From the IMG/VR virus record IMGVR_UViG_3300011116_000555, positions 1 through 36,401 of that record: a DNA stretch of 36,401 nt, one strand, 5' to 3'. Positions within the stretch are counted from its first letter, which is position 1. Every line of letters begins with the position of its first letter. The position numbers and the translations under genes are program-made. Positions 3,354 to 33,795 of the stretch are shown piece after piece. The notes under the pieces are model-generated. The model saw nothing but the letters and a program-made list of their open reading frames with translations, did not search any database and was not told the origin of the DNA. This stretch comes from a virus.

Positions 3354-3576
3354 TTTTATTGGTTTGCCCATTGCCACCTTAAATTCCCTGCGTGATAAGT
3401 ATATTACTTGCTTGGAGGCAATTGCGGTGGCAGGTGCAAGTTATTCTATTGCTGGAAGATCATTCAGCAGGGCAAATTTATCTGAGGTGAGAGAGATTAT
3501 TGCAGAATTGACCATTGCAATTCAATCTGCATCTGGCACAAGAATCAGAACCACCTATGCAAAATTCGGCCCATGA
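3340..3576 (+). CDS. gpW-like head-to-tail joining protein
   Basis: A 78-residue helical protein with YSIAGRSFSRANLSEVREII near its middle, matching the helix-hairpin-helix plan of lambda gpW, which fits under the portal after packaging. It lies between terminase and portal, as W does in lambda. The frame can start at TTG 3334, but the ATG at 3340 has GAGGAG seven bases upstream and is preferred. Its start lies inside the terminase gene, 13 nt after a TTGACA. It overlaps the portal start by ATGA. Confidence 0.8.
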   Translation: MAKGDFIGLPIATLNSLRDKYITCLEAIAVAGASYSIAGRSFSRANLSEVREIIAELTIAIQSASGTRIRTTYAKFGP

Positions 3577-6500
3577 AGCTTAAACAGACATTCCTGGATA
3601 AGCTTGTTTCATTTGTAAATCCCCAGGCTGGGGTTCAGAGGCTGATGGCTAAAAAAGCCCTAACAAAATTTGAATATGATGCAGTGAAATACACCAGGGA
3701 AAGGCGGGGGCCGAGCAATCTATCTGGTGCAGAGGACTATAGATCAAATTATGATCGTGTAGAACTGATGAAGAGGGCAAGAGACCTGGCAGAAAACAAT
3801 GGCCTGGTTCGCTCCATCTTGATGAAGTTTGCAAGCCATGTTGCATCAAATATCACATACCAGGCCAGAACAGATAAGCCCAAGGTAAATACTGAAATTG
3901 AAGCCTATTGGAATCAGTGGTTTGAGAATTGTGACCTATCAACCAGACATACAGGCTCAACCCTTATGCAGGTTGCAACCATGTCCATGCTCCGCGATGG
4001 AGATTTTCTTTTTGTATTGGTCAGAGATAAAGATGGAGACTTGAGGCTCCAGGGAATTGAATCTGATAGACTCGGCGACCCTTACAAAACTTATACAAGC
4101 TTGGAGCTTATTGGTGGTATTCACATTGATAGAGGAACAGGAGCACCAACTGCCTATGATATTTATAATCGTAGCATTGGAGATTTTTATACATACCAGG
4201 CAACTATTCCAGCAAGCCAGGCATTCCACTATTTTGACCCACTTAGGATTGATCAATATAGGGGTGTGTCTGCTTTCCATACAGCCATAAATGATGCCAC
4301 TGATATTTATGATATTGTGAACTTTGAAAAACTGGCCGCAAAGGTTGCCAGTTCACAGAGTGCAGTTGTGAAAAGGTCGAACAATAATGCCTCTGACCTT
4401 AGTGCATTAACCACAGAGGAAAACTTTGATAATCAACAAATTAAGTTGGAATCAATGGAATCTGGAAAGGTTAGTTATCTTGAGCCTGGAGAGGACATTA
4501 TTTTCCCAGACGGCCCTAGCAGACCCAGTGGAGCCTTTGCAGAGTTCCATAAAATTTTGCTGAGAAACATTTGCATGGGGCTTGGAATCCCATACTCCTT
4601 TGCTGTCGACCCATCTGCAATGTCCGGCCCAACAGCCAGGCTTGAAATGCAACAGGCTGGAAGAACTTTCAACAGATACCAGAAGCTTCTTAATGATAAG
4701 GTTCTGAGCCCAATCAAGAACATTGTTATTGCTGATGCTGTAGCCAGGGGAATTATCAGTGGGAATGGAGCCAAAACAACCAAAGGCTTTTTCAACTTTG
4801 GAGCAAATGTCTCTATCGACCTTGGACGGGAATCTGCATCAGCTATTGCAGAGTTCAAGGCTGGACTGAGAACTGCTTCAGATATTTACTCTGAAAGGGG
4901 TATGGATGTTGAAGCCGCCTTTAGGGCAAGAGCTATTGAGACCAAAATGATTCAAGACCTGGCAAAGGAGTATGGAGTTCCAGCCCAGGCAGTTTCTGAA
5001 ATTCTACTTCCCACAGGCCAGCCAGCACAACAAGGCCAACCAGGGCAAACAACCCAAGATGGTCAGCAAGTGGATGGCCAAGAGGATGTTATTGGCCAGA
5101 GTCTTAATGGAGCCCAGGTTGCCTCTCTTATCAATGTTATCAATGCAGTTGCGGCTGGTGCATTGTCCAAAGAGGGTGCAGTTTCAGTTATCACAGCCGC
5201 CTTCCCAACTATTTCAAGGGAACAGGCCGTCGGAATTGTTGCTGGTGTGCAGTCTGGAAAAATCATTCCAACCACAGAAAAAGAAAAACAAGCTGTCCAG
5301 GATGGTCAAAAGGATGAAGGCCAGGGTGGGGCTCCAGTTCCAGAAACACCAAAAACCCCAGTTCCTCCAACAGGCCTGGAAGAATTAAAATGCCCACTAC
5401 CAACTCAAGACATAAAGCTTAATTTAGAGAACAGGCAAACAGCAGTTGATAAGGCCAACTACGGGCCAGCCAATCCAAATGAACCCAATGAGGACTATTG
5501 GAAGGCAAAGGCCAATGAGTTCCAGGGTGATGTTGCAACAGCAAAGAAAATGCTTTGTGGTAATTGTGCCGCATTCAATCAAACAAGCAGACTACTTGGT
5601 TGCATTAAAAATGGAATTGGTGAAGATGCCAATGAGGTGGCACTTGGTGGAGACCTGGGATATTGTGAAATTTTTGATTTCAAATGTGCGGCCAAAAGAA
5701 CCTGCGATGCCTGGATTGTTGGCGGCCCATTAACAGATAAAAAAAAAGAAACTGAGCAAGCTCTATCAAGTTTAAGCCAGCAAGAGCTTAAAATGCTCAT
5801 TGCTGGAATGATGGGTGGAATTGAGTTGGGCAAGTATGATGGCATTGATTTTACCCCACCAGAAGGGGCAAGATTGGCCGCCAAAAGGGCTTTGGCAGTA
5901 AGGGAACAGAAACCATCTAGTCAAAAGGGAATGACGCCTGTAGGCATAGCCAGAGCACGAGATTTGATCAATGGAGTTAAGTTCTCTCCAGATACCGTCC
6001 GCAGAATGAAGGCATTCTTCGATCGCCATGAGGTTGATAAGAAAGGTGAAACCTGGGACGACCAAGGCAAAGGATGGCAAGCCTGGAATGGATGGGGTGG
6101 AGATGCTGGGTATTCCTGGGCAAAGAAAGTAGTTGGCCAGATGGAATCTAGGGATAACAAACAATTGGCACGCCCAATTGCCCAAACACCAGCACCAGCC
6201 AAAGACAGAATCAAGGGCTCAGAGCAAAACAAACCCGGCTCTGCGGCAACTAAAAGCACAGGAGGCAAAATTGAGATTGGAGAAGGAACAGAAGAATCCA
6301 TTAAGAATAAACTAAAGGAATGGAAAGATAAGCACCCAAACAAGAAAGCTCCATCTCTTGGAACTCTAATGAAGGTATTCAGAAGAGGTGCTGGTGCTTA
6401 CTCAACAAGCCATAGGCCAACCATCTCTGGTGGGGCTCCAAATAGCCGCAATGCCTGGGCAATGGCCAGGGTTAATAAATTCTTAAAGATGGCAGGTGGT

Positions 6501-7973
6501 GGTGAAGTGAAGAAAAGCTATAGACAGGCAGACGGAGATTTGCTTGAGGCAATTACATCAAATACCAATCTTGCGGCTGGTGATGGGCTAAATCCTTGTG
6601 GCATGAAAGATGACGGAACTTTCGATGATGAAAATGAATGTGCTCAAGGCTATGGAAGGCCAAAACTTGTTGGTGGATATACCCCTAAAAGGCCTGGCGG
6701 AAAGATTCCGACAAAGCCAGTAAAGCCAACACCAACAGGAACAAAGCCAAAGCCACCACTTCCACCACCCCCTCCACCACCGTCCCCTACTGGTGGAACA
6801 AAGCCTACAGATGAAAAGGAATCTAAATTTCCAAATTCGAAAAAGGAATATGACAGCAGGGAAAAGGCATCTCTTGAATCAGCCATTAAAGGAAATCAAA
6901 AGGAACTTGATTCAGTAAGACAAGCAGTCATCAAAAAGTCAGAAGATACGCTAAAAGAAATAGATTCTGCAAAAAATAATATTGCTGAATCACAAAAACA
7001 ATTAGAGGAACTTAGAGCAAAAGCAAGACCCCTAAGAAATGAGGCTGAGCAATATAGAGAATCAGACCCCAAAAAGTATATTGAAATACGAAGAACACTA
7101 GACATTGAATATGCAAAAATTAATAAACTGGAGCAAAACATTGAAGAGCAAGAAAAAAAAATAAAAACAGCAAATGAAAAAGCCAGGCAAATTGGATTTG
7201 CTGAAATCAAAAAAGATATGCTGGCTGTAAATAAACAGGATGGATTCTCATCAGAGCAATTAGCAAAGGCAACCCAAGGGCTAAAAGAACAACAACAATC
7301 AGCAATTGTTAATGATCGCAAATCACTAAAAGATAGTGCTATTGAATATGTTAAGGCAAGAAGAGAAGCGGCACAAGGAGCATTAAGAGAGATATGCAAT
7401 CCAAACATTCACACTAAATCATTAACAAGGCCAGTTACATATTGGAATCAGAAAAGAGCAGATTCAACTGCAACAATAGTGCAGTTTGTAGATGGAACAA
7501 GAAATTCAACAGGTGGTGGAATAAGGGTTAGCATAGAGACAGAGACAAAAACCTATATGCATGAATATGGGCATCAAATTGAAGATGGAAATCCAGAAGC
7601 AAAAGACCTTTGCATGGAATTTCTTAATAAAAGAACTGCTGGAGAAAAGATTCAAAAGTTCCAAAAGACAATGCCAGGCTACGGCTACAAAAGATATGAA
7701 AAGGGTTCAGCAGATGGGTTTGGAAAGGCTCATGCAGAACTTTTTCCAGAATTTGATACAAATAATCGGGCATATTATACTGGCAAAAGATATGATGATC
7801 AACCTTTTGGAGCTAGTTCAAAGTATATTGGAGCAACAGAAGTTTATTCTATGGGAATGGAATTGCTTCACAGAAATCCAGCAAAGTTTGCCAAGATAGA
7901 CCCAGAGTGGTTTGATCTAGTTACTGGAATTGCAACAGGAAGATTGCTAAAGAAAACAAGAGGGGTAGAATAA
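3573..7973 (+). CDS. Portal protein fused to accessory modules and a C-terminal zincin-like domain
   Basis: A 1466-residue open frame. Residues 1 to about 480 are a lambda gpB-type portal (FDPLRIDQYRGVSAF, the ICMGLGIPYSFAVDPSAMSG region). Then follow a Gln-rich linker (about 485-510), a Cys-rich module from about 662 (CGNCAAF, DFKCAAKRTCDAW), a module with GKGWQAWNGWGGDAGYSWA near 830-850, a module with RRGAGAYSTSHRP near 935, a proline-rich hinge near 1050-1080, a charged coiled coil (about 1090-1250), and a C-terminal domain with HEYGH at 1330-1334 and a candidate third ligand E1423. Ordinary portals are about 450-550 residues. From about 6800 the DNA is markedly A-rich, suggesting that the last part was acquired. 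The extra modules are found in phage head proteins generally, but I do not know their functions. The C-terminus would sit inside the capsid. Confidence 0.9.
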   Translation: MKLKQTFLDKLVSFVNPQAGVQRLMAKKALTKFEYDAVKYTRERRGPSNLSGAEDYRSNYDRVELMKRARDLAENNGLVRSILMKFASHVASNITYQARTDKPKVNTEIEAYWNQWFENCDLSTRHTGSTLMQVATMSMLRDGDFLFVLVRDKDGDLRLQGIESDRLGDPYKTYTSLELIGGIHIDRGTGAPTAYDIYNRSIGDFYTYQATIPASQAFHYFDPLRIDQYRGVSAFHTAINDATDIYDIVNFEKLAAKVASSQSAVVKRSNNNASDLSALTTEENFDNQQIKLESMESGKVSYLEPGEDIIFPDGPSRPSGAFAEFHKILLRNICMGLGIPYSFAVDPSAMSGPTARLEMQQAGRTFNRYQKLLNDKVLSPIKNIVIADAVARGIISGNGAKTTKGFFNFGANVSIDLGRESASAIAEFKAGLRTASDIYSERGMDVEAAFRARAIETKMIQDLAKEYGVPAQAVSEILLPTGQPAQQGQPGQTTQDGQQVDGQEDVIGQSLNGAQVASLINVINAVAAGALSKEGAVSVITAAFPTISREQAVGIVAGVQSGKIIPTTEKEKQAVQDGQKDEGQGGAPVPETPKTPVPPTGLEELKCPLPTQDIKLNLENRQTAVDKANYGPANPNEPNEDYWKAKANEFQGDVATAKKMLCGNCAAFNQTSRLLGCIKNGIGEDANEVALGGDLGYCEIFDFKCAAKRTCDAWIVGGPLTDKKKETEQALSSLSQQELKMLIAGMMGGIELGKYDGIDFTPPEGARLAAKRALAVREQKPSSQKGMTPVGIARARDLINGVKFSPDTVRRMKAFFDRHEVDKKGETWDDQGKGWQAWNGWGGDAGYSWAKKVVGQMESRDNKQLARPIAQTPAPAKDRIKGSEQNKPGSAATKSTGGKIEIGEGTEESIKNKLKEWKDKHPNKKAPSLGTLMKVFRRGAGAYSTSHRPTISGGAPNSRNAWAMARVNKFLKMAGGGEVKKSYRQADGDLLEAITSNTNLAAGDGLNPCGMKDDGTFDDENECAQGYGRPKLVGGYTPKRPGGKIPTKPVKPTPTGTKPKPPLPPPPPPPSPTGGTKPTDEKESKFPNSKKEYDSREKASLESAIKGNQKELDSVRQAVIKKSEDTLKEIDSAKNNIAESQKQLEELRAKARPLRNEAEQYRESDPKKYIEIRRTLDIEYAKINKLEQNIEEQEKKIKTANEKARQIGFAEIKKDMLAVNKQDGFSSEQLAKATQGLKEQQQSAIVNDRKSLKDSAIEYVKARREAAQGALREICNPNIHTKSLTRPVTYWNQKRADSTATIVQFVDGTRNSTGGGIRVSIETETKTYMHEYGHQIEDGNPEAKDLCMEFLNKRTAGEKIQKFQKTMPGYGYKRYEKGSADGFGKAHAELFPEFDTNNRAYYTGKRYDDQPFGASSKYIGATEVYSMGMELLHRNPAKFAKIDPEWFDLVTGIATGRLLKKTRGVE

Positions 7974-9449: not shown

Positions 9450-9812
9450 ATGAGCACTCAAATTGATAATGGGTATCGGACTTTCTCAACATCGTCCGCT
9501 ATCTCTGCTTATCGCATGGTTCAGCCTTCTACCGTCACTGCTGGTGGCGTTGATGTGGCTGTTACTGGTGCGACCAAAGCTATTGGTTCAACCCTTGAAG
9601 ATGTGGCGGCCGGCGGTTATGTGACCGTGAAGCTGTTCCATCCTACCTTCTTCGCGACCGTAAGTGGCACTGCCGCCGCTGGTGATGTGATGAAATTCGA
9701 TGCCGCTGGCCAGGTTACGACCTTGGCGGCAAACCTTGTTACTGCTGGAATTGCATTGGAAGCCGCTACTGCGACTTCTGCTGTGATTGAAATTGCAGTG
9801 CCAATGTTCTAA
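9450..9812 (+). CDS. Capsid decoration protein (gpD-like)
   Basis: A 120-residue, Ala/Thr/Val-rich beta protein between scaffold and major capsid, the position of lambda D. The centre (GGYVTVKLFHPTFFATVSGT) and the end (GIALEAATATSAVIEIAVPMF) match the common decoration/stabilising family. Such trimers plug the capsid threefold axes after expansion. Codon use shifts here to CGT, GCC, ACC and GAC compared with AGG/AGA-rich neighbours, consistent with high expression. The upstream ribosome site is weak (AAAAGGA). Confidence 0.8.
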   Translation: MSTQIDNGYRTFSTSSAISAYRMVQPSTVTAGGVDVAVTGATKAIGSTLEDVAAGGYVTVKLFHPTFFATVSGTAAAGDVMKFDAAGQVTTLAANLVTAGIALEAATATSAVIEIAVPMF

Positions 9813-9840: not shown

Positions 9841-10806
9841 ATGAGTTTTATTTCTGGTGGCACAACCATTCGGGCCGATATCAACCAGGCACTGGTTGAA
9901 GCCCCTAACGCCGAAACTGGCTTGATTGGAGCAGAGGTTCTGCCTTTGCTTCCTGTCTCTGCCAAGAGCGGACAATATCTCAAAGTTCAGCTTGCACAAG
10001 CTGACCTGTTGAACAATGACTCTAAGCCCCGCGCGGCCGCTGGTGATTATGCCCGTGCTGTTCGTTCCTTTGGAACTGACACGTACGACACGATCGAATA
10101 TGGCCTCGAAGAGCTAATTGATGATGGTTTCCGCGCTGATGCTGACAGGTTTTTTGATCTCGAAGCATCCTCGGCTCGCTTCCTCCTCCGCCAAATCAAA
10201 CTTGGCCATGAGAAGCGTGTAAGTGACCTGTTGTTTGCAAACACGACCCCATTCACAACTGCTGACCAGAGTGCAATCTCTGCCTACACCAATGCGAATC
10301 TTTCTAACATTGATGTGGCTGGTGATGTTGCTGGAGCCCGTACCGAGTTGAACAAGCTTGGTTATGAAGCCAACACAATCATCATGTCTGCCCCTGTGTT
10401 TGAGCGTATCCGCCGCACAACCAAACTCCAGAACCAGTTCTTTGGTGTTGTTTCTGACACCAAAGGCCGTCTCTTGAGTGAAGCCGAAATTGCCGCCGCC
10501 CTTGGGGTGGAGCGGGTTTTGGTTGGTCGGGCCGCAATTAACTCTGCTAATAAGAACAAGAGCTACTCTGGTGGATTCATTGTTCCCAATACGCAGATCA
10601 TTGTTGCCAATGTGCAAGGTGGTCAGTTCACTGCTGGTGGAATTGGTCGTACCCTGGTGTGGTCGGCTGATGCCCCTGGTGGTTTTGTTTCTGAAAGCTA
10701 TCGTGATGAAGCCCGTCGCTCCAATGTTCTCCGTGTTCGCATGAACACCAGTGAGAAGCTCATTGATGCTAACGCGGCCGTCCGCATCACCACAAGCTTC
10801 GCCTAA
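9841..10806 (+). CDS. Major capsid protein, lambda gpE family
   Basis: A 321-residue protein following the decoration gene. It has the HK97-fold order for this family: N-terminal arm, LIGAEVLPLLPVSAKSGQYL, an E-loop region, then a long helix with KLGHEKRVSDLLFANTTPF, and a C-terminal beta region ending in NAAVRITTSFA. Length matches lambda E (341). Codon use is the most biased of the window (CGT/CGC, GAC, ACC), as expected for the most abundant product. It is followed by a strong terminator. Confidence 0.9.
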   Translation: MSFISGGTTIRADINQALVEAPNAETGLIGAEVLPLLPVSAKSGQYLKVQLAQADLLNNDSKPRAAAGDYARAVRSFGTDTYDTIEYGLEELIDDGFRADADRFFDLEASSARFLLRQIKLGHEKRVSDLLFANTTPFTTADQSAISAYTNANLSNIDVAGDVAGARTELNKLGYEANTIIMSAPVFERIRRTTKLQNQFFGVVSDTKGRLLSEAEIAAALGVERVLVGRAAINSANKNKSYSGGFIVPNTQIIVANVQGGQFTAGGIGRTLVWSADAPGGFVSESYRDEARRSNVLRVRMNTSEKLIDANAAVRITTSFA

Positions 10807-10832
10807 AGACTGCTGTTGGTGTGTTCCTGGTG

Positions 10833-10872
10833 GGGGCTGGAGGGCTAAAACCTTCCAGCCCCTACTTTTTTT
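10833..10872 (+). terminator. Rho-independent terminator after the capsid gene
   Basis: A 12-bp stem GGGGCTGGAGGG / CCTTCCAGCCCC with one G-T pair and a six-base CTAAAA loop, followed by TAC and seven T residues. It would end or attenuate transcription after the major capsid gene, which raises the question of what transcribes the accessory and tail genes beyond it. The last T residues overlap a TTGACA at 10871. Confidence 0.9.
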
Positions 10873-10892
10873 GACAATACCATAACAATACT

Positions 10893-11189
10893 ATGGCACA
10901 ACCAACCACTTCATCTGTTTATTATGATCAGCTTTCTCATGCCGCACGCCCTGGAACCCAGTATGTAACTACAACTGGAACAGCCATCAGCCTGTCTAGT
11001 GGTTTTGCTGGTATCTATATTGTTTCGGACGCAAAGTTTTCAAGCATTTCCTCTGCTGTAACTGGCTTTTCTGGGCTTGCTAATGCAACGGCGGCCTCTG
11101 CCTCCACGATCAACGCAGGGATTTATCTTGCTGGCACTTGCACGGCTTTTTCTATTCATAGCGGAATTGTTCTTGGCATTGGTGACTAA
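10893..11189 (+). CDS. Small structural-like protein of unknown function
   Basis: A 98-residue Ser/Ala/Thr/Gly-rich protein, predicted mostly beta (GTAISLSSGFAGIYIVSDAK, then SSAVTGFSGLANATAASAST). The character resembles small phage head or fibre proteins, but I recognise no family. It is the first gene after the capsid terminator, with TTGACA 16 nt before the ATG and no good Shine-Dalgarno sequence. Confidence 0.7.
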   Translation: MAQPTTSSVYYDQLSHAARPGTQYVTTTGTAISLSSGFAGIYIVSDAKFSSISSAVTGFSGLANATAASASTINAGIYLAGTCTAFSIHSGIVLGIGD

Positions 11190-11211
11190 AAGTCTGTAAG
11201 GTTAAATCCTT

Positions 11212-11952
11212 ATGATGATTAAGGGCGGGATTCGAATTAGCAGAATAATCATTAAAAGAGATGCCCCATCTCCACTACTAACCGGATTGCTTGCATATTG
11301 GAAGCTGGACAATAACGGAAGCGGGGGAGTTTCTTATTTAGATTCAACTGGAAATTCGAGAACACTTTCTGCTCCCAATGGAACTGGTGGATTATCTTTG
11401 GGGGCTGGAATAATAAATGGAAGCGCAACTTTTAATGGAGATGAACAGACTTATTTAACAACAAGCGGAACATTTCTTGATGGCTCAAGAGATGAATATA
11501 GCATTTCTGCTTGGGTAAATACATACGAATCACTTCTTTTTATAGTCAATCAATCTACGGGGGATAATTGGGGTGGGTCTTCAATTGCAATTGAGCTTTC
11601 TGATGGAAATTTAATTGGAACTGTATTTTGGAGTTCAGGACCTAATTACGACAGGGCAATAGGATCATCCTTCTTAAATGATGAAGGATGGAATCATGTC
11701 GCAATGACATGGAAAAGAACTGGCTCAATTAGAGTTTATGTTAATGGTGTATTAGATGGGTCGAATTCTTCTTCTGGAAATTATGCAAATGTTCCAACAG
11801 AAAATATTTCAATAAATGGAAATGCTGACGGAACTTTTGCAGTTGGGAAAAATTGCTCCATAGATGAGGTAGGAATTTGGAACAAAGAACTATCTCAAGT
11901 GGAAATTGCTGATTTATATAATTCTGGAATAGGGAAAAGCTATCCATTTTAA
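11212..11952 (+). CDS. LamG/concanavalin-like jelly-roll protein
   Basis: A 246-residue protein with a laminin-G-like/concanavalin jelly-roll: LLAYWKLDNNGSGG at the front, YSISAWVNT, GWNHVAMTWKRTGSIRVYVN, and the typical end SIDEVGIWNKELSQVEIADL. Such domains bind glycans or proteins; in phages they occur on head fibres and tail tips. It has no signal peptide. The gene is A+T-rich compared with its neighbours, suggesting recent gain. It starts at a double ATG right after AAATCCT and an AAGG/CCTT mini-hairpin. It is followed by glycosyltransferases, so a virion-surface glycan role is plausible. Confidence 0.85.
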   Translation: MMIKGGIRISRIIIKRDAPSPLLTGLLAYWKLDNNGSGGVSYLDSTGNSRTLSAPNGTGGLSLGAGIINGSATFNGDEQTYLTTSGTFLDGSRDEYSISAWVNTYESLLFIVNQSTGDNWGGSSIAIELSDGNLIGTVFWSSGPNYDRAIGSSFLNDEGWNHVAMTWKRTGSIRVYVNGVLDGSNSSSGNYANVPTENISINGNADGTFAVGKNCSIDEVGIWNKELSQVEIADLYNSGIGKSYPF

Positions 11953-11992
11953 TGGACACATAAACACAAAAAATCCTATTCTGAAATCCTCA

Positions 11993-13648
11993 ATGAAACA
12001 CGACCTTTCAATTTACTTAATCTCTGGAAATGAGGAAGCCTATATTGCCAGGTGTCTGGAATCATTTAAGCCAATGGCAGAAGAGTTTATTATTTGCATC
12101 GCTAGGGGGAGCCTTGAGGCAGACAAAACAGAAGAGATCGCATTGGCTCACGGCGCTAGAATTGTTCATTATAAAAATAAAAACAATGATTGGAATCATG
12201 TAGATGATTTTGCCTCTGCCAGGAATACTGCCCTAGAGGCTTGCAAGAATGAATGGGCTTTGTGGGTAGATGCTGATGATGTGATGCAACCAGGGGCAGA
12301 AACCCTGGTGGACAATGCCATTGAGGAGGCAAACAAAAGAGGAGCAGATTTGATTGCCTTTAGATACGATGTTCAAAATGCTGGCCTTATCCCGCTGAGA
12401 GAAATGGCCAGCAGAAAAGGCAAATGCAAGTGGAGGAACAGGGTTCATGAGGCTCTTGTTGCGAATGAGCCAGATAAGCTTTTTGGTGTGGACAAGGTGG
12501 TTAGGATTCACAAGCCACATGGCTATAAAAAAGCTTCAGCAGAAAGAAATTTCACAATTCTAAAAGACACCCTGGAGCCAGCCCCCAACTCCCTTTATTA
12601 CACACAGCAAGAATATTTCCTTACAATGAACTTTGAAAAATGCCTGGAGTTTGGTGAAATGGCATTAATGTTCAAAGACCTTGATGATACTCTGAGATAT
12701 GAAGTTCTTTGCAATATGGGCAGATGTGCAAAGCCAGAGAACAGGCTGAAATATCTTGGCCAGGCAATTGCCCTCCAGCCAGATAGAAGAGAGGCACACT
12801 ATTGGACAGCATTGGAATATGCTGGAAGGGGTCAATGGGCTAAAGCCTGGGGCTCTGCCAGGGCGGCCATGAGCTTACCAAGACCAGCTTCACACTACTG
12901 GAACCAGGTAGAAGCCATCTATGGGTGGCAATCAATAGACCTTTATGAGACTGCTTCTGCTTGTGTTGGCAAGGCTGATGAGGTGGCAAAGATGAAGAAG
13001 ATAAAGCCAGCCCCAAGAATAACCATGGTTCATGCAACCAAGGGAAGACCGCAGGTTGCCTGGCAGAGAAGGTTTCAGTGGCTTTCATTGGCTGAAAAAC
13101 CTATGGAAGTTGAATGGTTATTCATGGTTGATCATGATGACCCAATTGATTACACGCCCCACCAGGCCATTAGATGCAATCCTGGTGGCATTATCAATGC
13201 TTGGAACCAGGGTGCAAAACTAGCCAATTCAGACATCATTGTGCAGATGTCTGATGATTGGGCTCCACCAAGACACTGGGATGCCTCTATTTGCTCTTTA
13301 ATTGGCTCTAAAAACACCGATCAAGTGCTGGCCATATCAGATGGCTACAGAACAGATAAACTGCTCTGTATGGCTATTCTAAACAAAAAGAGGCTTGAGA
13401 CCCAGGGTGGATGGTTATTCCATCCAGACTACCAGGATTCAGATGGGCTGTATTCAGATAATGAGTTCACAGAAAGAGCCTATGCCGACCAGGTTGTTGT
13501 TGAGGCAAAGGACTTGAAGTTTACTCATGAGAACCCAATTCACACTGGCAAAGAAGCAGACAAGCAACTGATTCACCACAACAAGCCAGAGTTTTATGAA
13601 AAAGGCAAAGCCATCTATGACAAAAGAAAAGCAAACAACTGGGCTTAA
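11993..13648 (+). CDS. Two-domain GT2-type glycosyltransferase with TPR-like middle
   Basis: A 551-residue protein. The N-terminal GT-A domain has SIYLISGNEEAYIARCLESF and the DxD motif in WVDADDV (D93/D95). The middle (about 200-335) is helical and TPR-like (REAHYWTALEYAGRGQWAKAW). A second GT-A-like domain (about 340-551) has VHATKGRP, MVDHDDP and MSDDWAPP. GT2 enzymes move sugars from nucleotide-sugars to an acceptor. There are no membrane helices. It heads a run of five tightly packed glycan genes and is preceded by two AAATCCT boxes. The acceptor is unknown: host surface polysaccharide or virion protein are both possible. Confidence 0.85.
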   Translation: MKHDLSIYLISGNEEAYIARCLESFKPMAEEFIICIARGSLEADKTEEIALAHGARIVHYKNKNNDWNHVDDFASARNTALEACKNEWALWVDADDVMQPGAETLVDNAIEEANKRGADLIAFRYDVQNAGLIPLREMASRKGKCKWRNRVHEALVANEPDKLFGVDKVVRIHKPHGYKKASAERNFTILKDTLEPAPNSLYYTQQEYFLTMNFEKCLEFGEMALMFKDLDDTLRYEVLCNMGRCAKPENRLKYLGQAIALQPDRREAHYWTALEYAGRGQWAKAWGSARAAMSLPRPASHYWNQVEAIYGWQSIDLYETASACVGKADEVAKMKKIKPAPRITMVHATKGRPQVAWQRRFQWLSLAEKPMEVEWLFMVDHDDPIDYTPHQAIRCNPGGIINAWNQGAKLANSDIIVQMSDDWAPPRHWDASICSLIGSKNTDQVLAISDGYRTDKLLCMAILNKKRLETQGGWLFHPDYQDSDGLYSDNEFTERAYADQVVVEAKDLKFTHENPIHTGKEADKQLIHHNKPEFYEKGKAIYDKRKANNWA

Positions 13649-13650
13649 AT

Positions 13651-14259
13651 ATGCAAGAAGTAACCATTAACGATTCATTTGGAGGGGCAATGGCCAGGTA
13701 TAGCTATGGCCTAGATGTTGGCTTGGAGATTGGTGGGGGAACTGGAGATGGCTCCACTCAGTGCATCAGAACAAAAAAGCTTTTCTCAATTGAAAACCAC
13801 CCAGATAGGGTTGGAAGGCATAGAATGAACCTTGAGCTAAAGGGTGGAGTTTCAATCCAGGGAACAGCAGTTATTCCTAGTTTATGGATGAACAAGAAAG
13901 ATGTTGAAGAGTTTTATAGAACTACAAAAACAAACTTAAACCAATACCCAGTTGAACAGGTTTTGGGCTGGTATGATGAGTGCCTGGAAACAGCCAAGCC
14001 ATATAAGACAAGTTCCATTGAGGACATCAGTGTTGAGCATAATGTAAATTTCAACTTTGTGCTTATTGATGGCTCACCATTCTCTGGTGAAGCAGAGCTT
14101 CGGTGTGTAAGGCCATTCTTGGCAGAGAAAGCAATCATTGCCCTGGACGACATAAACGACATTAAAAATTGGACTAACTACCACAAGCTAAAAGGCTTTG
14201 CCAAACTGCTGTGGGAGGATTGGTCTGTGCGGAATGGAGCCGCTATTTTTGGACTATGA
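13651..14259 (+). CDS. SAM-dependent methyltransferase-like protein
   Basis: A 202-residue protein with a class I methyltransferase plan: motif I GLEIGGGTGDGSTQCI (about 30-45), the acidic ribose-binding position in FSIENHPDR, and a motif IV-like FVLIDGSPFSGEAELR followed by IIALDDINDI. This resembles O-methyltransferases of the Methyltransf_24 kind used in glycan tailoring. It overlaps the next gene by ATGA. The substrate is unknown; the surrounding glycosyltransferases suggest a sugar. Confidence 0.7.
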   Translation: MQEVTINDSFGGAMARYSYGLDVGLEIGGGTGDGSTQCIRTKKLFSIENHPDRVGRHRMNLELKGGVSIQGTAVIPSLWMNKKDVEEFYRTTKTNLNQYPVEQVLGWYDECLETAKPYKTSSIEDISVEHNVNFNFVLIDGSPFSGEAELRCVRPFLAEKAIIALDDINDIKNWTNYHKLKGFAKLLWEDWSVRNGAAIFGL

Positions 14260-14768
14260 TTAAAGGAGTAATTACATCAGAAGCCCCACAAATTCACTGG
14301 GAACATCTCAATGTTACTGGAGGCAGGGTTCTAGATTTAGGATGTGCATTCTGGACACAGGCAGAAAGAGAAGAGGGGAATGGAACAGCCAAATATTTTC
14401 TGTCTCAAAAGCCAGAGTTTTACATGGGAGTGGACATTAACCAGGGGGACATAACAACCCTTTCAGAGCAATACCCAGAAGGAAAGTTCATCTGTGAAAA
14501 GGCAGATTCAGCATTTCAAATGGATTCCTGGATAACTGAAAATTCAATTACCCATGTTAAATGCGACATTGAGGGAGATGAGGCGCATCTCTTGCAGATT
14601 GGTAATATTCACAATCTAAAAGAGATTGCCATTGAGCTACACTATTCAGATGCCTGGCTAAATGAATTCATGGATTGGTTCAAGTCTATTGGCTTTGAGT
14701 GTTACAGGCATGACTCAGTTTCTTTCTGCTCAGAAATCAGTGTTATATATGGCAGACTAAAATGCTGA
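14256..14768 (+). CDS. FkbM-like methyltransferase
   Basis: A 170-residue protein from the ATG overlapping the previous stop; longer upstream starts would lie inside that gene. It shows motif I (GRVLDLGCAFWTQAE), the acidic MGVDINQGD position and the FkbM-type HVKCDIEGDEAHLLQIG box, where the E-G-D/A-E pattern is characteristic. FkbM-type enzymes O-methylate sugars and are frequent in polysaccharide clusters. It is somewhat shorter than the usual family (about 200-250). Confidence 0.7.
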   Translation: MIKGVITSEAPQIHWEHLNVTGGRVLDLGCAFWTQAEREEGNGTAKYFLSQKPEFYMGVDINQGDITTLSEQYPEGKFICEKADSAFQMDSWITENSITHVKCDIEGDEAHLLQIGNIHNLKEIAIELHYSDAWLNEFMDWFKSIGFECYRHDSVSFCSEISVIYGRLKC

Positions 14769-15532
14769 CAATCTTTACCATTGTTCTCAATGGGATGCCA
14801 TACATCAACAGGCATCTTGATGAGTTCAAGAAGCTAAAGATTCCATGGCAGTGGAAGATTGTGGAGGGAGTTTCAGAGCCACTTGGATGCACCAGGTGGT
14901 GCAAGCAGGTTCCAGACAAATGGCACAAGAACTTTGTTAGTGTGGATGGAACCCATGAATATCTAAATAGCCTAAATGAACCTAATGTTTCAGTTTATTG
15001 GCAAGCTAAACCATTTCCAGGGAAATTGGCGATGATTAAAGAGGCTTTGCAGGGAGTAGAAAAAGGGGTGGTAATGGAGATTGATGCTGATGAAATGTGG
15101 AGAGCAGACCAGCTAGATGCAATTTATGGACATCTGAAGGGATGTGAAGAGGGTCGTGCAATGCAGTTTCATTGTAATTATTATGTTGGGCAAAACAAAA
15201 AGGTTGTGACTAGGCAGGGCTTTGGCTCCAACTGGTATGAGTGGTTCAGAGCCTGGAAGTGGGGGAAGAGCATTGAGTTTATAAGCCATGAGCCACCAAA
15301 GCTAAATGTGAATGGTCTTATGATTCCAAGGGGAATGACAGAAGCCTGGGGATTAACCTTTGAGCATTTTGCCTATACAACCAGGGAGCAAGTGCAATTC
15401 AAGGAAGATTTCTATGGATACAAGGGGCTGGTTGAAGGATGGGAAAAGCTACAGCAAACCAATGGGCCGGTAAGGCTTTCAGATTATATGCCATTTGTAG
15501 CAGACAAGAGTGTCGCTGATGACTCAGCCTAG
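14762..15532 (+). CDS. GT-A-type glycosyltransferase-like protein
   Basis: A 256-residue protein beginning LTIFTIVLNGMPYINRHLDE, the typical first strand of a GT2-like fold, with a DxD-type motif in VVMEIDADEMW (near residue 110). The C-terminal half is rich in aromatic residues (NWYEWFRAWKWGKSIEFISH), likely the acceptor side. It overlaps both neighbours, placing it in the glycan operon. Confidence 0.75.
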   Translation: MLTIFTIVLNGMPYINRHLDEFKKLKIPWQWKIVEGVSEPLGCTRWCKQVPDKWHKNFVSVDGTHEYLNSLNEPNVSVYWQAKPFPGKLAMIKEALQGVEKGVVMEIDADEMWRADQLDAIYGHLKGCEEGRAMQFHCNYYVGQNKKVVTRQGFGSNWYEWFRAWKWGKSIEFISHEPPKLNVNGLMIPRGMTEAWGLTFEHFAYTTREQVQFKEDFYGYKGLVEGWEKLQQTNGPVRLSDYMPFVADKSVADDSA

Positions 15533-16196
15533 AACCATAAAATACAGCCAAAGGCTTGGGGATGTTCTCAGATGCCTTCCAGCCTGTAAATATTTGGCAG
15601 ATCAGGGGCATGAGGTGTTTTTTGATTGCTATGCCCAATATCATGGGGTCTTTGAAATGGTTTCCTATGTAAAGGCTGGACATAGACAGGGGGTAACCAT
15701 TGACCTGGAGATTTGGCCTAATAGGTATGAGGAGTTTATAAAGAGCAAAAAGACATGGCATGACTTTGTGTATTCCCATAACTCAATCAAGGATGCAGAT
15801 AAAACTAACATTATCCTGGACAGACTAGATAAAGCACCAGCAGAAGGGCTCCCCACAAATTATGTCTTGGTTGCACCATTTGGAATAAGCCAATCATACA
15901 AAAGAGACCCAGTTGTAATTATACAGGATGCAGTTAGAGAATTTGGCAGAGATAATATTATTATTTTATGCCCAGAGGGAGCATCAATCCAAGGGCTCAG
16001 AACCTATACAGCACCAACAATTCAAGATATGGCAAAGGCCATTAGGGATGCAGAAGAGTTCCTGGCCGTAAATTCAAGCCCAATCATCCTGGCGTCTGCC
16101 GTAAGGAATGGCAAAACAAGCAGACTTTATGGAGAGAAATTTGAGCATAAAGTTCAGAATGTCTTTGATTTTGAGGGGCTTGTAATAATAGATTGA
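15519..16196 (+). CDS. GT-B, heptosyltransferase-like (GT9-type) protein
   Basis: A 225-residue protein. The N-terminal RLGDVLRCLPACKYLADQG is the GT9 (ADP-heptose transferase) opening; the second half has YVLVAPFG and EFLAVNSSPIILASA, matching the nucleotide-sugar-binding half of that family. It is shorter than bacterial heptosyltransferases (about 320-350), so it is a minimal or diverged member. The ATG at 15519 is chosen over GTG 15510; both overlap the preceding gene. It is the last of the glycan cassette. Confidence 0.65.
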   Translation: MTQPRTIKYSQRLGDVLRCLPACKYLADQGHEVFFDCYAQYHGVFEMVSYVKAGHRQGVTIDLEIWPNRYEEFIKSKKTWHDFVYSHNSIKDADKTNIILDRLDKAPAEGLPTNYVLVAPFGISQSYKRDPVVIIQDAVREFGRDNIIILCPEGASIQGLRTYTAPTIQDMAKAIRDAEEFLAVNSSPIILASAVRNGKTSRLYGEKFEHKVQNVFDFEGLVIID

Positions 16197-16211: not shown

Positions 16212-16529
16212 GTGGGTGGCACAATTCAAACTTCCTATTTCAGCACAGACTTAAACTACATGATAACAGACCTGTGGCAATCTGTCACTGGTCTTGGTTC
16301 AAGTGCTGTTTCTGCAAGTGTTACAGACCTGGCAGTGTCATCTGAGTTGGATGTAGGCGGAGATGTTTTTAGAATCACACAGAGTGTTGTTGTCTGTGCA
16401 TCCATGATTTCTGCCCCTGTAATTGGAAACCTTTGCACGGTGTCTGGTATTGAAAGGATGATTGCTGGATTCTCACAATCCACAGACGGACTTTCCTATA
16501 CAATAGACATGGCAGAGATTACAACATAA
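16212..16529 (+). CDS. Probable head-tail connector protein
   Basis: A 105-residue protein starting at GTG (an ATG two bases earlier is in a short closed frame). It has a Ser/Val-rich beta character (DLAVSSELDVGGDVFRITQS) and a YTIDMAEITT end. Size, position after the head block and before tail-completion genes, and beta content resemble gpFII-type connectors, but no clear motif supports this. TTGACA lies 13 nt upstream, overlapping the stop of the glycan cassette. Confidence 0.6.
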   Translation: MGGTIQTSYFSTDLNYMITDLWQSVTGLGSSAVSASVTDLAVSSELDVGGDVFRITQSVVVCASMISAPVIGNLCTVSGIERMIAGFSQSTDGLSYTIDMAEITT

Positions 16530-16533
16530 GGCC

Positions 16534-16950
16534 ATGGCATCTATTGAAAGAGAGGTTGAGAATGGGCTTCTCAATGCTGTCTCTGCTGTAACTGGTCTGA
16601 ATGCCTATACAAGTGAAAGAGGAGAGGCAAGGCTTTTGCCAAACATGGTGGCTCAAGCACAGATTGGGTCTGAGGTTCTCGGCCCATTTACAGGTGTTTT
16701 TAGTGTTCCAGCAACCATTACATATACAGCCAGGGCAGACTCAACAACCAGGGTGGCATTCGATGCCAAGTTCCAAGACATCATGAACCAGCTTTACAGG
16801 TCTCCAGACCTTCCAACATATATGACAAATGTGTCCAGCATCTCAGTTTATGTTGCTAAGGTAACAAGTGAAAGCCCTCAGATCATTGCCCAGAATAGAA
16901 CCTGGTCAAAAACAATCACCCTGGACATAAGTGCAACAGCTAAAAAATGA
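16534..16950 (+). CDS. Tail completion-like protein, copy 1
   Basis: A 138-residue protein with a helical start (EREVENGLLNAVSAVTGLNA), a beta core (GVFSVPATITYTARADSTT), a helix (FDAKFQDIMNQLYRSPDL) and an end ITLDISATAKK. It aligns by eye along its whole length with the next gene, so the two are tandem paralogues. Size and position suggest tail terminator or completion proteins (lambda U/Z region). It overlaps the next gene by ATGA. Confidence 0.65.
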   Translation: MASIEREVENGLLNAVSAVTGLNAYTSERGEARLLPNMVAQAQIGSEVLGPFTGVFSVPATITYTARADSTTRVAFDAKFQDIMNQLYRSPDLPTYMTNVSSISVYVAKVTSESPQIIAQNRTWSKTITLDISATAKK

Positions 16951-17369
16951 GCCAATCAATCCAGCTTAACCTAGAGAATGCCATTGCAAGCATTCTGTCT
17001 AGTGTGTCTAATGTTAATGTTTATACAGCTAATCGTGTTGGGGCTAGGCTTTACCCATTTGTAACTATCCAGGCATCTATTAACTCCCAGCTTCTTGGGA
17101 ACTATACTGGTGTCTATGATTTGAATGTTCTGGTGAACTACTCAGACACTGCTGATAAGATTACCCAGGATGACTTTGATTCAAAGTATTGTGATGTATT
17201 TAATGCATTCTATGAGCAAACGCCAACACTGGTAGCCAAGATTCAGAATGTAATAGCCAATACAAAGGTCTTTATGGCCAGGATTGTAAGCCAGACACCA
17301 TCTATAAGAACAGATAAGGATGCCTGGCAAAGAGGCTTAACACTGAATGTTTATGCAACACCACAATGA
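16947..17369 (+). CDS. Tail completion-like protein, copy 2 (paralogue)
   Basis: A 140-residue protein paralogous to the gene before it: ENAIASILSSVSNVNVYTAN matches ENGLLNAVSAVTGLNAYTSE; LLGNYTGVYDLNVLVNYS matches VLGPFTGVFSVPATITYT; RGLTLNVYATPQ matches KTITLDISATAK. Divergence is large at DNA level, so the duplication is old. The two may form a hetero-oligomeric ring or serve two positions of the neck. Confidence 0.65.
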   Translation: MSQSIQLNLENAIASILSSVSNVNVYTANRVGARLYPFVTIQASINSQLLGNYTGVYDLNVLVNYSDTADKITQDDFDSKYCDVFNAFYEQTPTLVAKIQNVIANTKVFMARIVSQTPSIRTDKDAWQRGLTLNVYATPQ

Positions 17370-18300: not shown

Positions 18301-18678
18301 ATGGAAGGCCATACTTACTGGGGAACAACAAATCTCAAGGTTGCATCTGCTGTTGCGGCCTTTGGTGCAAAGCCTAGACCTGTCGATCCTGTAACCAGGG
18401 TAATTAAAGATGGACAGCAACAAGTAACATTCTGGTTTATATCTGATGGCAATGGAGATGTTGCAAAAAAGGAAATGGAGAGAACATGGGCAGATATGCA
18501 ATCTGATGAGGAATCTCCAATTAGATATGTTAGAGCGGCCTTAGAGAACCGAGAAACATTGTTAGGGCTCGTTAAGAGAGCAGAGCCGATTAGAATTATC
18601 CAGGTAGGTGGGCAAACCCTCATGGTGCCGGAGAATGCCAGCCCAGAAAGAAAGAAGGCACTTTTAAGACATATATGA
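18301..18678 (+). CDS. Unknown protein upstream of the tail assembly chaperone
   Basis: A 125-residue protein. The front is beta (GTTNLKVASAVAAFGAKPRP), then comes a charged helix with ADMQSDEESPIRYVRAALEN, and an end with MVPENASPERKKALLRHI. No family recognised. It overlaps the following tail chaperone by ATGA, and its place between tube and chaperone suggests a tail assembly role. Confidence 0.65.
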   Translation: MEGHTYWGTTNLKVASAVAAFGAKPRPVDPVTRVIKDGQQQVTFWFISDGNGDVAKKEMERTWADMQSDEESPIRYVRAALENRETLLGLVKRAEPIRIIQVGGQTLMVPENASPERKKALLRHI

Positions 18679-32533: not shown

Positions 32534-32924
32534 ACAGGCCAACTTATTTGGTGGAGAGCTTGAGCCAGACCAGGGTGATTCAAAGTATTCATCAAAGATA
32601 GAGGCTCCTATCTATGAGCCAAAGAACAAGAAGCCTCACCTGCTTGAACTGGTTGATATTGCAAAATCAAACAGCCTAATTAGGGAGATTCTTGCATCAG
32701 ACATTCCACAAGATGTGAAGGAGTTTCTGATTGAGGCGGCCAAGAGGCATAGTGTGTTCAATTATGAAAAGATTGCAGACTACTATGCTCATGCCACGCC
32801 AGAGGTTCAGCATCTAATGGAGAAGTCTGCCCTGGTTATCATAGACTTCGGGAAGGCCATTCAAAATGGATATGTGAAGCTTTGTGATGAGATAAGGAGC
32901 CAATATCTTGAGCAAACAGAATGA
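32517..32924 (+). CDS. Conserved phage protein, unknown
   Basis: A 135-residue protein starting at GTG, with GGGAGG six bases upstream. The C-terminal part (REILASDIPQDVKEFLIEAA; KIADYYAHATPEVQHLMEKS; LVIIDFGKAIQNGYVKL) is a recurring phage block that I associate with ParB-like and base-modification neighbourhoods, but its function is unknown to me. It is directly followed by the GREB1/TAGT-like glycosyltransferase. Confidence 0.6.
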   Translation: MDGIHKQANLFGGELEPDQGDSKYSSKIEAPIYEPKNKKPHLLELVDIAKSNSLIREILASDIPQDVKEFLIEAAKRHSVFNYEKIADYYAHATPEVQHLMEKSALVIIDFGKAIQNGYVKLCDEIRSQYLEQTE

Positions 32925-33795
32925 TTTTGCCATCTTCATCCTAACCCACGGCAGACCAACCAATGTAAAGACCATGGCAACCCTTCAGAGGGCTGGCTAC
33001 ACTGGAAAGCTTTACCTGGTTGTGGATGATGAGGACAAGACCCTGGACAAATACATTGCCAACTTTGGCAAGGATAGGGTTGTGGTATTCAACAAGAAGC
33101 AGTTGGCAGACCAGGTTGATGAAGGCAACAACTTTGATGAGAGAAGGACAATCACTCATGCCAGGAATGCCTGTTTCCAAATAGCCAAGGACAAGGGGCT
33201 GAAGTTCTTTATGGAGTTAGATGATGACTACATATCTTTTGAATACAGATATGTAAGCAGGTGTGGTGAGAAGCTTAATGTTCACAGGATAACAAACCTG
33301 GACAGCATTCTTGGGCTCTACCTTGAGTTTTATAAAGCAACAGGGTTCTTTAGCATAGCCTTTGCCCAGGGTGGAGACTTCATTGGTGGTGTTGAAAATA
33401 GATATGCCACTAAGAAGCCATTGATCAGAAAATGCATGAACTCATTCATCTGCTCTCCAGATAGGCCATTCCAATTTATTGGTGCAATGAATGAGGATGT
33501 GAATACCTATGTGACCCTTGGCTCAAGGGGGACAATGTTTGGAACCATCCCAATGATAAGCCTGGTTCAGACAGCTACCCAGAGCCAGAAAAACGGTATA
33601 ACTGATATGTATCTGAGGTTTGGAACATACTGCAAGGCTTTCACTACGGTGATGATGCACCCATCCAGTGTTAGAATTTCTATGATTAACACCAGCAACC
33701 CCAGGATTCACCATCTTATTAAGTGGCAGAACACAACCCCAATGATTGTCTCAGAGGAGCATAAGAAGCCAGTGTGTGTAAGTTGTGACAAATAA
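32908..33795 (+). CDS. GREB1/TET-associated-type glycosyltransferase-like protein
   Basis: A 295-residue protein starting at TTG with AAGGAG eight bases before; an ATG 12 bases on is out of frame. FAIFILTHGRPTNVKTMATL, KLYLVVDDEDKTLDKYIANF, a HARNACFQIAKDKG helix and FMELDDDYISFEYRY are the motifs of the GT-A fold seen in GREB1-like and TET/JBP-associated glycosyltransferases. Those phage enzymes are proposed to glucosylate oxidised bases in DNA. No TET/JBP dioxygenase is visible here, so the acceptor is uncertain. The gene stands in the replication block, apart from the other glycosyltransferases. Confidence 0.7.
   Translation: MSKQNDFAIFILTHGRPTNVKTMATLQRAGYTGKLYLVVDDEDKTLDKYIANFGKDRVVVFNKKQLADQVDEGNNFDERRTITHARNACFQIAKDKGLKFFMELDDDYISFEYRYVSRCGEKLNVHRITNLDSILGLYLEFYKATGFFSIAFAQGGDFIGGVENRYATKKPLIRKCMNSFICSPDRPFQFIGAMNEDVNTYVTLGSRGTMFGTIPMISLVQTATQSQKNGITDMYLRFGTYCKAFTTVMMHPSSVRISMINTSNPRIHHLIKWQNTTPMIVSEEHKKPVCVSCDK

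What the first reader, a model, noticed from the sequence alone, without database searches (positions are those of the whole stretch)
11212..16196. Glycan-modification cassette inside the structural operon
A LamG-like protein, a two-domain GT2, two methyltransferase-like proteins, another GT-A-like protein and a GT9-like protein lie between the capsid terminator and the neck genes. Expression with late genes suggests that virion proteins, rather than the host surface, may be the acceptor; the Ser/Thr-rich protein at 10893, LamG protein or fibre are candidates. The GT9-like opening also allows a link to lipopolysaccharide-type sugars.
Basis: partly seen in the sequence, partly recalled or inferred. 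Interest (0 to 1): 0.7.

Follow-up and report, generated by a model that had tools for sequence, protein, structure and literature searches.

The report
Phage virion-glycosylation gene cassette
A group of uncultured phages always carries, right after the shell-protein gene, a block of sugar-attaching and methylating enzymes whose core enzyme is built like known protein-sugar-coating enzymes, so these phages probably sugar-coat one of their own virus-particle proteins and keep swapping parts of the sugar recipe.

Summary
After the capsid gene and its terminator lie a LamG protein, a large GT2 enzyme, two methyltransferase-like proteins, a GT-A-like protein and a short GT9-fold protein, in abutting or overlapping ORFs that run into further late genes. 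The GT9-fold protein's best Foldseek match is TibC, a protein heptosyltransferase, but LPS heptosyltransferases match as well. All 69 capsid-bearing relatives with enough DNA downstream carry this enzyme behind the capsid gene. The genes after it are under purifying selection but exchangeable. A DNA glycosyltransferase (TAGT) elsewhere in the window occurs in only 6 of 23 related records, so the cassette is not coupled to it. Best reading: cytoplasmic glycosylation and O-methylation of a conserved virion protein, functionally like the mycobacteriophage Corndog cassette but with a different enzyme core. Chemistry, acceptor and host are not shown.

The parts
9841..10806 (+). Major capsid protein; anchor gene of the locus
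   Evidence: phrog_1005 major head protein E 3.2e-34; 69 of 69 relatives with enough downstream DNA carry GT2-TPR-GT2 behind it
10829..10866 (+). Intrinsic terminator after the capsid gene
   Evidence: 16-bp stem plus T run; hairpin + T run in 88/88 relatives
10893..11189 (+). 98-aa Ser/Thr-rich (28%) protein, first gene of an optional two-gene module
   Evidence: composition; in 33 of 35 long-gap loci and 0 of 50 short-gap loci
11212..11952 (+). LamG/ConA-like lectin-fold protein in an exchangeable slot (LamG, c9, Gly_rich_2 or short c17-type protein in relatives)
   Evidence: PF13385 E 3.5e-18; slot content in relatives
11984..11990 (+). AAATCCT element just upstream of the GT2-TPR-GT2 start (a second copy at 11971-11977; another at 11204-11210 before LamG)
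   Evidence: in 53 of 56 distinct upstream 25-mers of this gene; none before capsid, MT1, MT2, GTA, GT9-like or the next late genes
11993..13648 (+). Core enzyme: GT-A (res. 1-~175) + TPR (~195-330) + second GT-A (~340-515); proposed protein glycosyltransferase that starts the glycan
   Evidence: PF00535; GmaR E 3e-10 and SunS E 1.3e-8 by profile; Foldseek SunS E 1e-15; VIA ThuS Z 18.3 over 270 residues, C-terminal domain WrtF Z 17.6; both acidic motifs invariant
13651..14259 (+). MT1, class I SAM methyltransferase-like (Methyltransf_24 type)
   Evidence: PF13578 E 0.035; hhalign 70% to Methyltransf_24 proteins of related cassettes; in 50 of 53 intact loci
14256..14768 (+). MT2, possible FkbM-like methyltransferase; occupies an exchangeable slot
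   Evidence: motif-level likeness only, hhalign E 0.004, probability 8.5%; in 27 of 53 loci; start inferred from stops in relatives
14762..15532 (+). GT-A-like glycosyltransferase with conserved DADE motif
   Evidence: PF00535 E 0.04; conservation; weak profile match to the core GT2 domain aligning the two DxD motifs; 50 of 53 loci
15519..16196 (+). Short GT9-fold (GT-B) glycosyltransferase
   Evidence: AlphaFold2 pLDDT 86.9; Foldseek TibC E 2.7e-6, GT9 3tov E 5e-6, WaaC E 5.4e-6; VIA Z 15.5 to heptosyltransferase II
16212..16529 (+). First downstream late gene, right border of the cassette in 53 distinct loci
   Evidence: synteny
32908..33795 (+). TAGT-type DNA glycosyltransferase elsewhere in the genome; relevant to the DNA rival, not part of the cassette
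   Evidence: PF20691 E 1.8e-32; in 6 of 23 related records

Best explanation
The block 11993-16196 is a cassette for glycosylating a virion protein. Inferred mechanism: in the host cytoplasm late in infection, the GT-A+TPR half of the 551-aa enzyme binds a phage structural protein and attaches a first sugar to it. The second GT-A domain, the separate GT-A-like enzyme and the short GT9-fold enzyme extend this to a short oligosaccharide, and MT1 and MT2 O-methylate it. The acceptor is a virion protein shared by all members of the group (capsid, the small head protein before it, or a neck/tail-tube protein), not the optional Ser/Thr-rich or LamG proteins. Lineages exchange the later enzymes and so change the glycan, while the initiating enzyme stays with its capsid. 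Shown: gene content, domain build, conservation, selection, synteny, exchangeability. Inferred: catalysis, order of steps, acceptor, purpose (probably shielding or changing the particle surface).
For: GT2+TPR build matching protein/peptide glycosyltransferases: GmaR, SunS and ThuS by sequence profile and SunS/ThuS by structure, with SunS the best NCBIfam hit. In the TPR glycosyltransferase FlmG the TPR part is what binds the protein acceptor (PMC7591256). 69/69 capsid-bearing loci with enough DNA carry the enzyme behind the capsid gene. Purifying selection, median dN/dS about 0.065-0.11. No transmembrane-like segment in any cassette enzyme of the window. Swapped-in genes in relatives are again of sugar or methylation type: Methyltransf_24, FkbM, Methyltransf_23, GT7, Nucleotid_trans, exostosin GT47, epimerase, plus a radical-SAM/B12 protein. 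An unrelated capsid lineage shows the same layout: podovirus ctKR88 has an SU10-type capsid gene, one small gene, then GT2-TPR-GT4, glycosyltransferases and methyltransferases, and its relative L145 keeps the capsid gene, small gene and the three glycosyltransferases in that order. Published parallel: Corndog has an O-methyltransferase and glycosyltransferases between portal and protease genes, proposed to modify the capsid (PMC4351075), and related mycobacteriophages are cited as carrying glycans on capsid and tail tube.
Against: No virion of this group has been studied, and no acceptor sequon or glycopeptide is known. Pfam does not recognise MT2 at all and MT1 and the GT-A-like protein only below cut-off. 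The GT9-fold protein is as close to LPS heptosyltransferases as to TibC. SunS-like similarity covers only the first half of the core enzyme. Tight linkage to the capsid gene could partly reflect inheritance as a block. A DNA glycosyltransferase exists elsewhere in this genome, so this phage may use sugars on another target.
Confidence: 0.62

Rival explanations
1. Host-surface modification: the enzymes alter host LPS, capsule or flagellar glycans during infection, masking receptors or blocking superinfection.
For: The GT9-fold protein matches WaaC/WaaF-type heptosyltransferases as well as TibC; GmaR is a flagellar glycosyltransferase, so a host surface protein could be the acceptor; temperate-phage glycosyltransferases that modify host serotype are known (stated in PMC12619734).
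Against: No flippase-like or lipid-carrier membrane enzyme in any relative's cassette examined; fixed position next to the capsid gene in all informative relatives, whereas surface-conversion genes usually sit with lysogeny or moron genes (own knowledge); no capsid relative found in bacterial genomes, hence no sign of prophage life.
Confidence: 0.16
2. DNA hypermodification: the cassette builds a glycan on modified bases begun by the TAGT enzyme at 32908-33795.
For: TAGT (PF20691 E 1.8e-32) in the same genome; virus-encoded glycosyltransferases making diverse DNA glycans are published (title cited).
Against: TAGT found in only 6 of 23 related records, absent from several of 34-38.5 kb that carry the core enzyme; no thymidylate-synthase-type gene in 16 records and no C5-methylase in the window; TET search negative but its control did not ring, so inconclusive; TPR and SunS/GmaR likeness favour a protein acceptor.
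Confidence: 0.1
3. The acceptor is the optional module itself: the Ser/Thr-rich protein at 10893 and/or the LamG protein is the glycosylated decoration.
For: They lie directly upstream in this phage; the 10893 protein is 28% Ser+Thr; LamG and the core enzyme share the AAATCCT element.
Against: 50 of 85 loci lack the module and 29 of these hold a cassette bounded on both sides; cassette genes are about equally frequent with and without it. It could still be an additional acceptor.
Confidence: 0.1

Closest known systems
Cluster O mycobacteriophage (Corndog) capsid-modification genes gp35-gp38, and virion glycosylation of Che8-type phages
   Same: O-methyltransferase plus glycosyltransferases inside the virion structural genes; proposed or reported glycans on capsid and tail-tube proteins
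   Different: Here between capsid and neck genes, not between portal and protease; core enzyme GT-A+TPR+GT-A; no Corndog hit by tblastn of the core enzyme, GT-A-like protein or MT1; uncultured, host unknown
SunS/ThuS peptide S-glycosyltransferases and GmaR flagellar glycosyltransferase (GT2 + TPR)
   Same: Catalytic GT2 domain followed by TPR-like helices over about 280 residues; Z 18 to ThuS
   Different: Extra C-terminal GT-A domain, phage structural locus, about 16-20% identity, far below the SunS equivalog cut-off (27.8 vs 350 bits)
TibC (autotransporter protein heptosyltransferase) and GT9 heptosyltransferases WaaC/WaaF
   Same: GT9-type GT-B fold (Foldseek E about 1e-6, VIA Z 13-15.5)
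   Different: Only about 225 residues against 320-400; no GT9 family HMM hit; donor sugar unknown
Podovirus ctKR88 (Manatee Spring) glycosyltransferase block
   Same: GT2+TPR enzyme one gene behind the capsid gene, then glycosyltransferases and methyltransferases, then late genes
   Different: Unrelated capsid family by blastp (SU10 type) and a C-terminal GT4-type domain instead of the second GT-A
TAGT DNA glycosyltransferases
   Same: Present in this genome at 32908; sugar transfer by a phage enzyme
   Different: Different family, elsewhere in the genome, and not coupled to the cassette

Membership tests
Virion-protein glycosylation cassette (Corndog type) | Glycosyltransferase and methyltransferase genes inside the structural gene region | tested here: met
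Virion-protein glycosylation cassette (Corndog type) | Homology to the Corndog enzymes | tested here: inconclusive
   tblastn of core GT, GT-A-like protein and MT1 against 50,697 phage records gave no Corndog hit; Corndog's presence in the collection was not checked
Virion-protein glycosylation cassette (Corndog type) | Glycan covalently attached to a virion protein | not testable with these tools
   needs virions and mass spectrometry
GT2-TPR protein glycosyltransferase (SunS/GmaR kind) | GT-A domain with DxD followed by TPR helices | tested here: met
GT2-TPR protein glycosyltransferase (SunS/GmaR kind) | SunS equivalog score cut-off (TIGR04195, 350 bits) | tested here: not met
   27.8 bits: same build, not a SunS equivalog
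GT2-TPR protein glycosyltransferase (SunS/GmaR kind) | Transfer of sugar to a peptide or protein | not testable with these tools
   no assay possible
GT9 / BAHT heptosyltransferase (15519-16196) | GT9 GT-B fold | tested here: met
GT9 / BAHT heptosyltransferase (15519-16196) | Pfam or NCBIfam family hit of GT9 kind | tested here: not met
   none; a fold relative, not an assigned member
TAGT DNA glycosyltransferase system | Cassette enzymes belong to PF20691 or depend on it | tested here: not met
   no PF20691 hit in the cassette; TAGT in 6 of 23 records
Serotype-conversion (gtr-like) cassette | Membrane flippase and lipid-carrier glycosyltransferase with transmembrane helices | tested here: not met
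   no cassette enzyme of the window reaches a Kyte-Doolittle 19-residue mean of 1.6; among genes after the core enzyme in relatives only an epimerase (1.6) and an ORF read into the next late gene (1.92) do
FkbM methyltransferase (MT2) | Methyltransf_21 family match | tested here: inconclusive
   no Pfam hit, hhalign E 0.004 but 8.5% probability

The most novel reading that the evidence does not exclude
A widespread group of uncultured phages has an obligatory, modular 'virion serotype' locus. A capsid-linked GT-A+TPR+GT-A enzyme starts a glycan on the capsid or another universal virion protein, and an exchangeable set of glycosyltransferases, methyltransferases, epimerase and radical-SAM genes diversifies it, as O-antigen loci do for bacteria. 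An unrelated capsid lineage (ctKR88) reached the same layout independently.
Probability: 0.4. Interest if true: 0.75.

Novelty: new variant of a known kind. Interest (0 to 1): 0.52.

Why it matters
Virion glycosylation in tailed phages is documented in only a few cases, mainly mycobacteriophages. Here it would be a fixed, obligatory trait of a whole environmental phage group, with a recognisable initiating enzyme and exchangeable tailoring genes. That would give a way to spot glycosylated phages from sequence (GT2+TPR gene next to the capsid gene) and would raise the question of what selects for changing sugar coats on phage particles outside animal immunity.

Tried and rejected
Nucleotide search of named phages: no match. 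Host search by capsid in 84,980 species genomes: none; by core enzyme: one MAG contig labelled Chthoniobacteraceae (L146, 33% identity), itself possibly phage, so the host stays unknown. TTGACA as a promoter for the cassette: the promoter-like count equals chance, and TTGACA occurs in the window less often than in every shuffle; not used as evidence. Thymidylate-synthase and C5-methylase searches for a DNA-modification pathway: not linked to the cassette; TET search uninformative because no control rang. Apparent stop codons in MT2 and GT9-like homologues lie in falsely extended N-termini; only L135 GTA looks broken. PDB profile searches for MT1, MT2, GT-A-like and GT9-like gave no usable hit by sequence. 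GT-A-like against core GT2 by profile: weak, E 0.035. Distance correlation (capsid vs core enzyme rho 0.74; MT1 vs GTA 0.81; capsid vs MT1 0.29) suggests exchange of the later genes, but physical linkage alone could produce part of it.
Full report
WHAT IS THERE. The window is a 36,401-base virus record, not found among named phages by nucleotide search of its 9-18 kb part. Terminase, portal and capsid genes precede the region. The six ORFs named in the finding exist at the given coordinates. They are co-directional and the five enzymes abut or overlap (13648/13651, 14256-14259, 14762-14768, 15510-15532), as in one transcription and translation unit. The capsid gene ends at 10806 and is followed by a strong intrinsic terminator at 10829-10866.

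IDENTITIES. LamG is secure (PF13385 E 3.5e-18). The 551-aa protein has two GT2 stretches (PF00535 E 4e-17). A profile of 17 relatives finds GmaR (3e-10), SunS (1.3e-8), ThuS 7msk (4e-6) and TPR proteins. The AlphaFold2 model (mean pLDDT 76) aligns with ThuS and SunS over residues 2-283 (Z 18.3, rmsd 3.0, 270 residues), and its C-terminal domain aligns with GT-A enzymes such as WrtF (Z 17.6). Both acidic motifs (WVDADD and QMSDDW) are invariant across the alignment. The last protein folds as a short GT9-type GT-B enzyme (pLDDT 87). By Foldseek its best match is TibC, a protein heptosyltransferase (abstract of PMC4358343), closely followed by GT9 3tov and WaaC. By VIA-align WaaF/WaaC score slightly above TibC, so protein and LPS specificity cannot be told apart by fold. 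MT1 is supported as a Methyltransf_24-type enzyme by profile comparison. MT2 and the GT-A-like protein are weaker calls.

COMPARATIVE TEST. I fetched 80 loci by the capsid protein alone, a set not selected for the cassette, and 80 by the core enzyme (partly the same contigs). Loci with identical core-enzyme sequence were then merged, leaving 99. Of 69 loci with a complete capsid gene and at least 2.7 kb downstream, 69 carry the core enzyme; this count pools both searches, but in the capsid-only set the loci without it were likewise only those whose contig ends too soon. Of 53 that also reach the next late gene, 50 have MT1, 50 GTA, 47 GT9-like and 27 MT2. In the missing positions other genes appear: Methyltransf_24, FkbM, Methyltransf_23, a GT7, a Nucleotid_trans protein, an exostosin GT47, an epimerase and a radical-SAM/B12 protein. 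In L126 the cassette is only the core enzyme plus one further gene. These loci are related, so counts are not independent events. The five enzymes are under purifying selection (median dN/dS 0.065-0.11), like the capsid (0.083).

ACCEPTOR. The Ser/Thr-rich protein at 10893 and the LamG slot form a removable module. Of 85 loci measured, 50 have capsid and core enzyme only 67-233 bp apart and none of these has the 10893 protein; 33 of the 35 long-gap loci have it. Twenty-nine short-gap loci hold a cassette bounded on both sides, against 20 long-gap ones. So these proteins are not the required acceptor, although they may be additional ones. The acceptor, if a virion protein, should be one shared by all: capsid, the small protein at 9450, or a neck/tail protein. 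A fibre was not tested, and this step is inferred.

MECHANISM, SHOWN AND INFERRED. Shown: domain build, conservation, selection, synteny, absence of membrane enzymes, exchange of tailoring genes. Inferred: direct cytoplasmic transfer from sugar nucleotides to a protein held by the TPR block, as the TPR domain of FlmG holds flagellins (PMC7591256); extension by the other glycosyltransferases; O-methylation by the MTs. GmaR has the same order, glycosyltransferase then TPR (PMC3150276).

INDEPENDENT PARALLELS. Podovirus ctKR88 has an SU10-type capsid gene, unrelated by blastp, then a small gene, a GT2-TPR-GT4 enzyme, further glycosyltransferases and methyltransferases, then late genes. Its relative L145 keeps capsid, small gene and the three glycosyltransferases in that order. 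A 33%-identical core enzyme in a MAG contig is fused to a Methyltransf_24 domain and followed by a GT2. The distantly related Enterobacter phage Mulvp2 (capsid 28%) has no annotated glycosyltransferase between capsid and the following genes.

RIVALS. A TAGT-type DNA glycosyltransferase lies at 32908-33795 (PF20691). It is found in only 6 of 23 related records and is missing from several of 34-38.5 kb that carry the core enzyme, so cassette and DNA glycosylation are not coupled; those records may still be incomplete. A host-surface role is not excluded, but it lacks membrane or lipid-carrier enzymes and does not explain the fixed link to the capsid gene.

REGULATION. The terminator hairpin follows the capsid gene in 88 of 88 relatives. 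AAATCCT stands within 25 bases upstream of the core enzyme in 53 of 56 distinct sequences, and never before capsid, MT1, MT2, GTA, GT9-like or the next late genes. The same motif precedes LamG/c9-type slot genes and the gene at 18301 in relatives. Its role is unknown. It suggests that the cassette has its own initiation signal, so 'late-gene expression' is plausible but not simple read-through from the capsid gene.

KNOWN OR NEW. Corndog carries an O-methyltransferase and glycosyltransferases between portal and protease genes; these were proposed to modify the capsid and were seen in infected cells but not in virions (PMC4351075). Che8-type phages are reported to carry capsid glycans (cited in PMC11256854), and capsid and tail-tube glycans are cited in PMC12619734. 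The original paper is not held in the library. The kind is therefore known; the TPR-containing core enzyme, its invariable place behind the capsid gene in a large environmental group, and the exchangeable tailoring slots make it a new variant.

LIMITS. No host, no virion, no chemistry. All loci except the named phages are metagenomic. Family libraries recognise only part of the enzymes.

Noticed in passing
window 32908-33795: TAGT (TET-associated DNA glycosyltransferase) gene, E 1.8e-32, in a genome without a detectable C5-methylase or thymidylate-synthase-type gene; found in 6 of 23 related records.
   Followed up: partly
window 11204, 11971, 11984, 18291, 24058, 27734: Motif AAATCCT sits a few nt (11971: 16 nt) before the starts of five genes; before the core enzyme it is present in 53 of 56 distinct relatives. 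Too close to the start codon for a normal Shine-Dalgarno; possibly a translational or regulatory element.
   Followed up: partly
window 10829-10866: Strong terminator behind the capsid gene, with sequence-divergent hairpins in 88 of 88 relatives, in the middle of the structural genes: a likely stoichiometry device.
   Followed up: partly
L019-L032 and others, between capsid and core enzyme: Small lipoprotein-like ORF (c8, MKWLVLAIILSGC...) in place of the LamG module; possible superinfection-exclusion lipoprotein.
   Followed up: no
L077:12372-13676 and 14290-15186: Radical-SAM/B12-binding protein and NAD-dependent epimerase inserted in the cassette, suggesting unusual sugar chemistry in one relative.
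   Followed up: no
window 3573-7973: 1466-aa portal-type protein with long C-terminal extension; hits include portal, minor head and unknown phage families.
   Followed up: no
L080:2337-3260, L072:2222-2641, L126:5562-5945: Slot proteins with different bodies share a short N-terminus (MA.YG.GMSVS.S), as if an exchangeable domain were hung on a common particle anchor.
   Followed up: no
window 16534-16950 and 16947-17369: Two adjacent, similar-looking late genes that may be a duplication; in some relatives the second cross-matches the place of the first.
   Followed up: no
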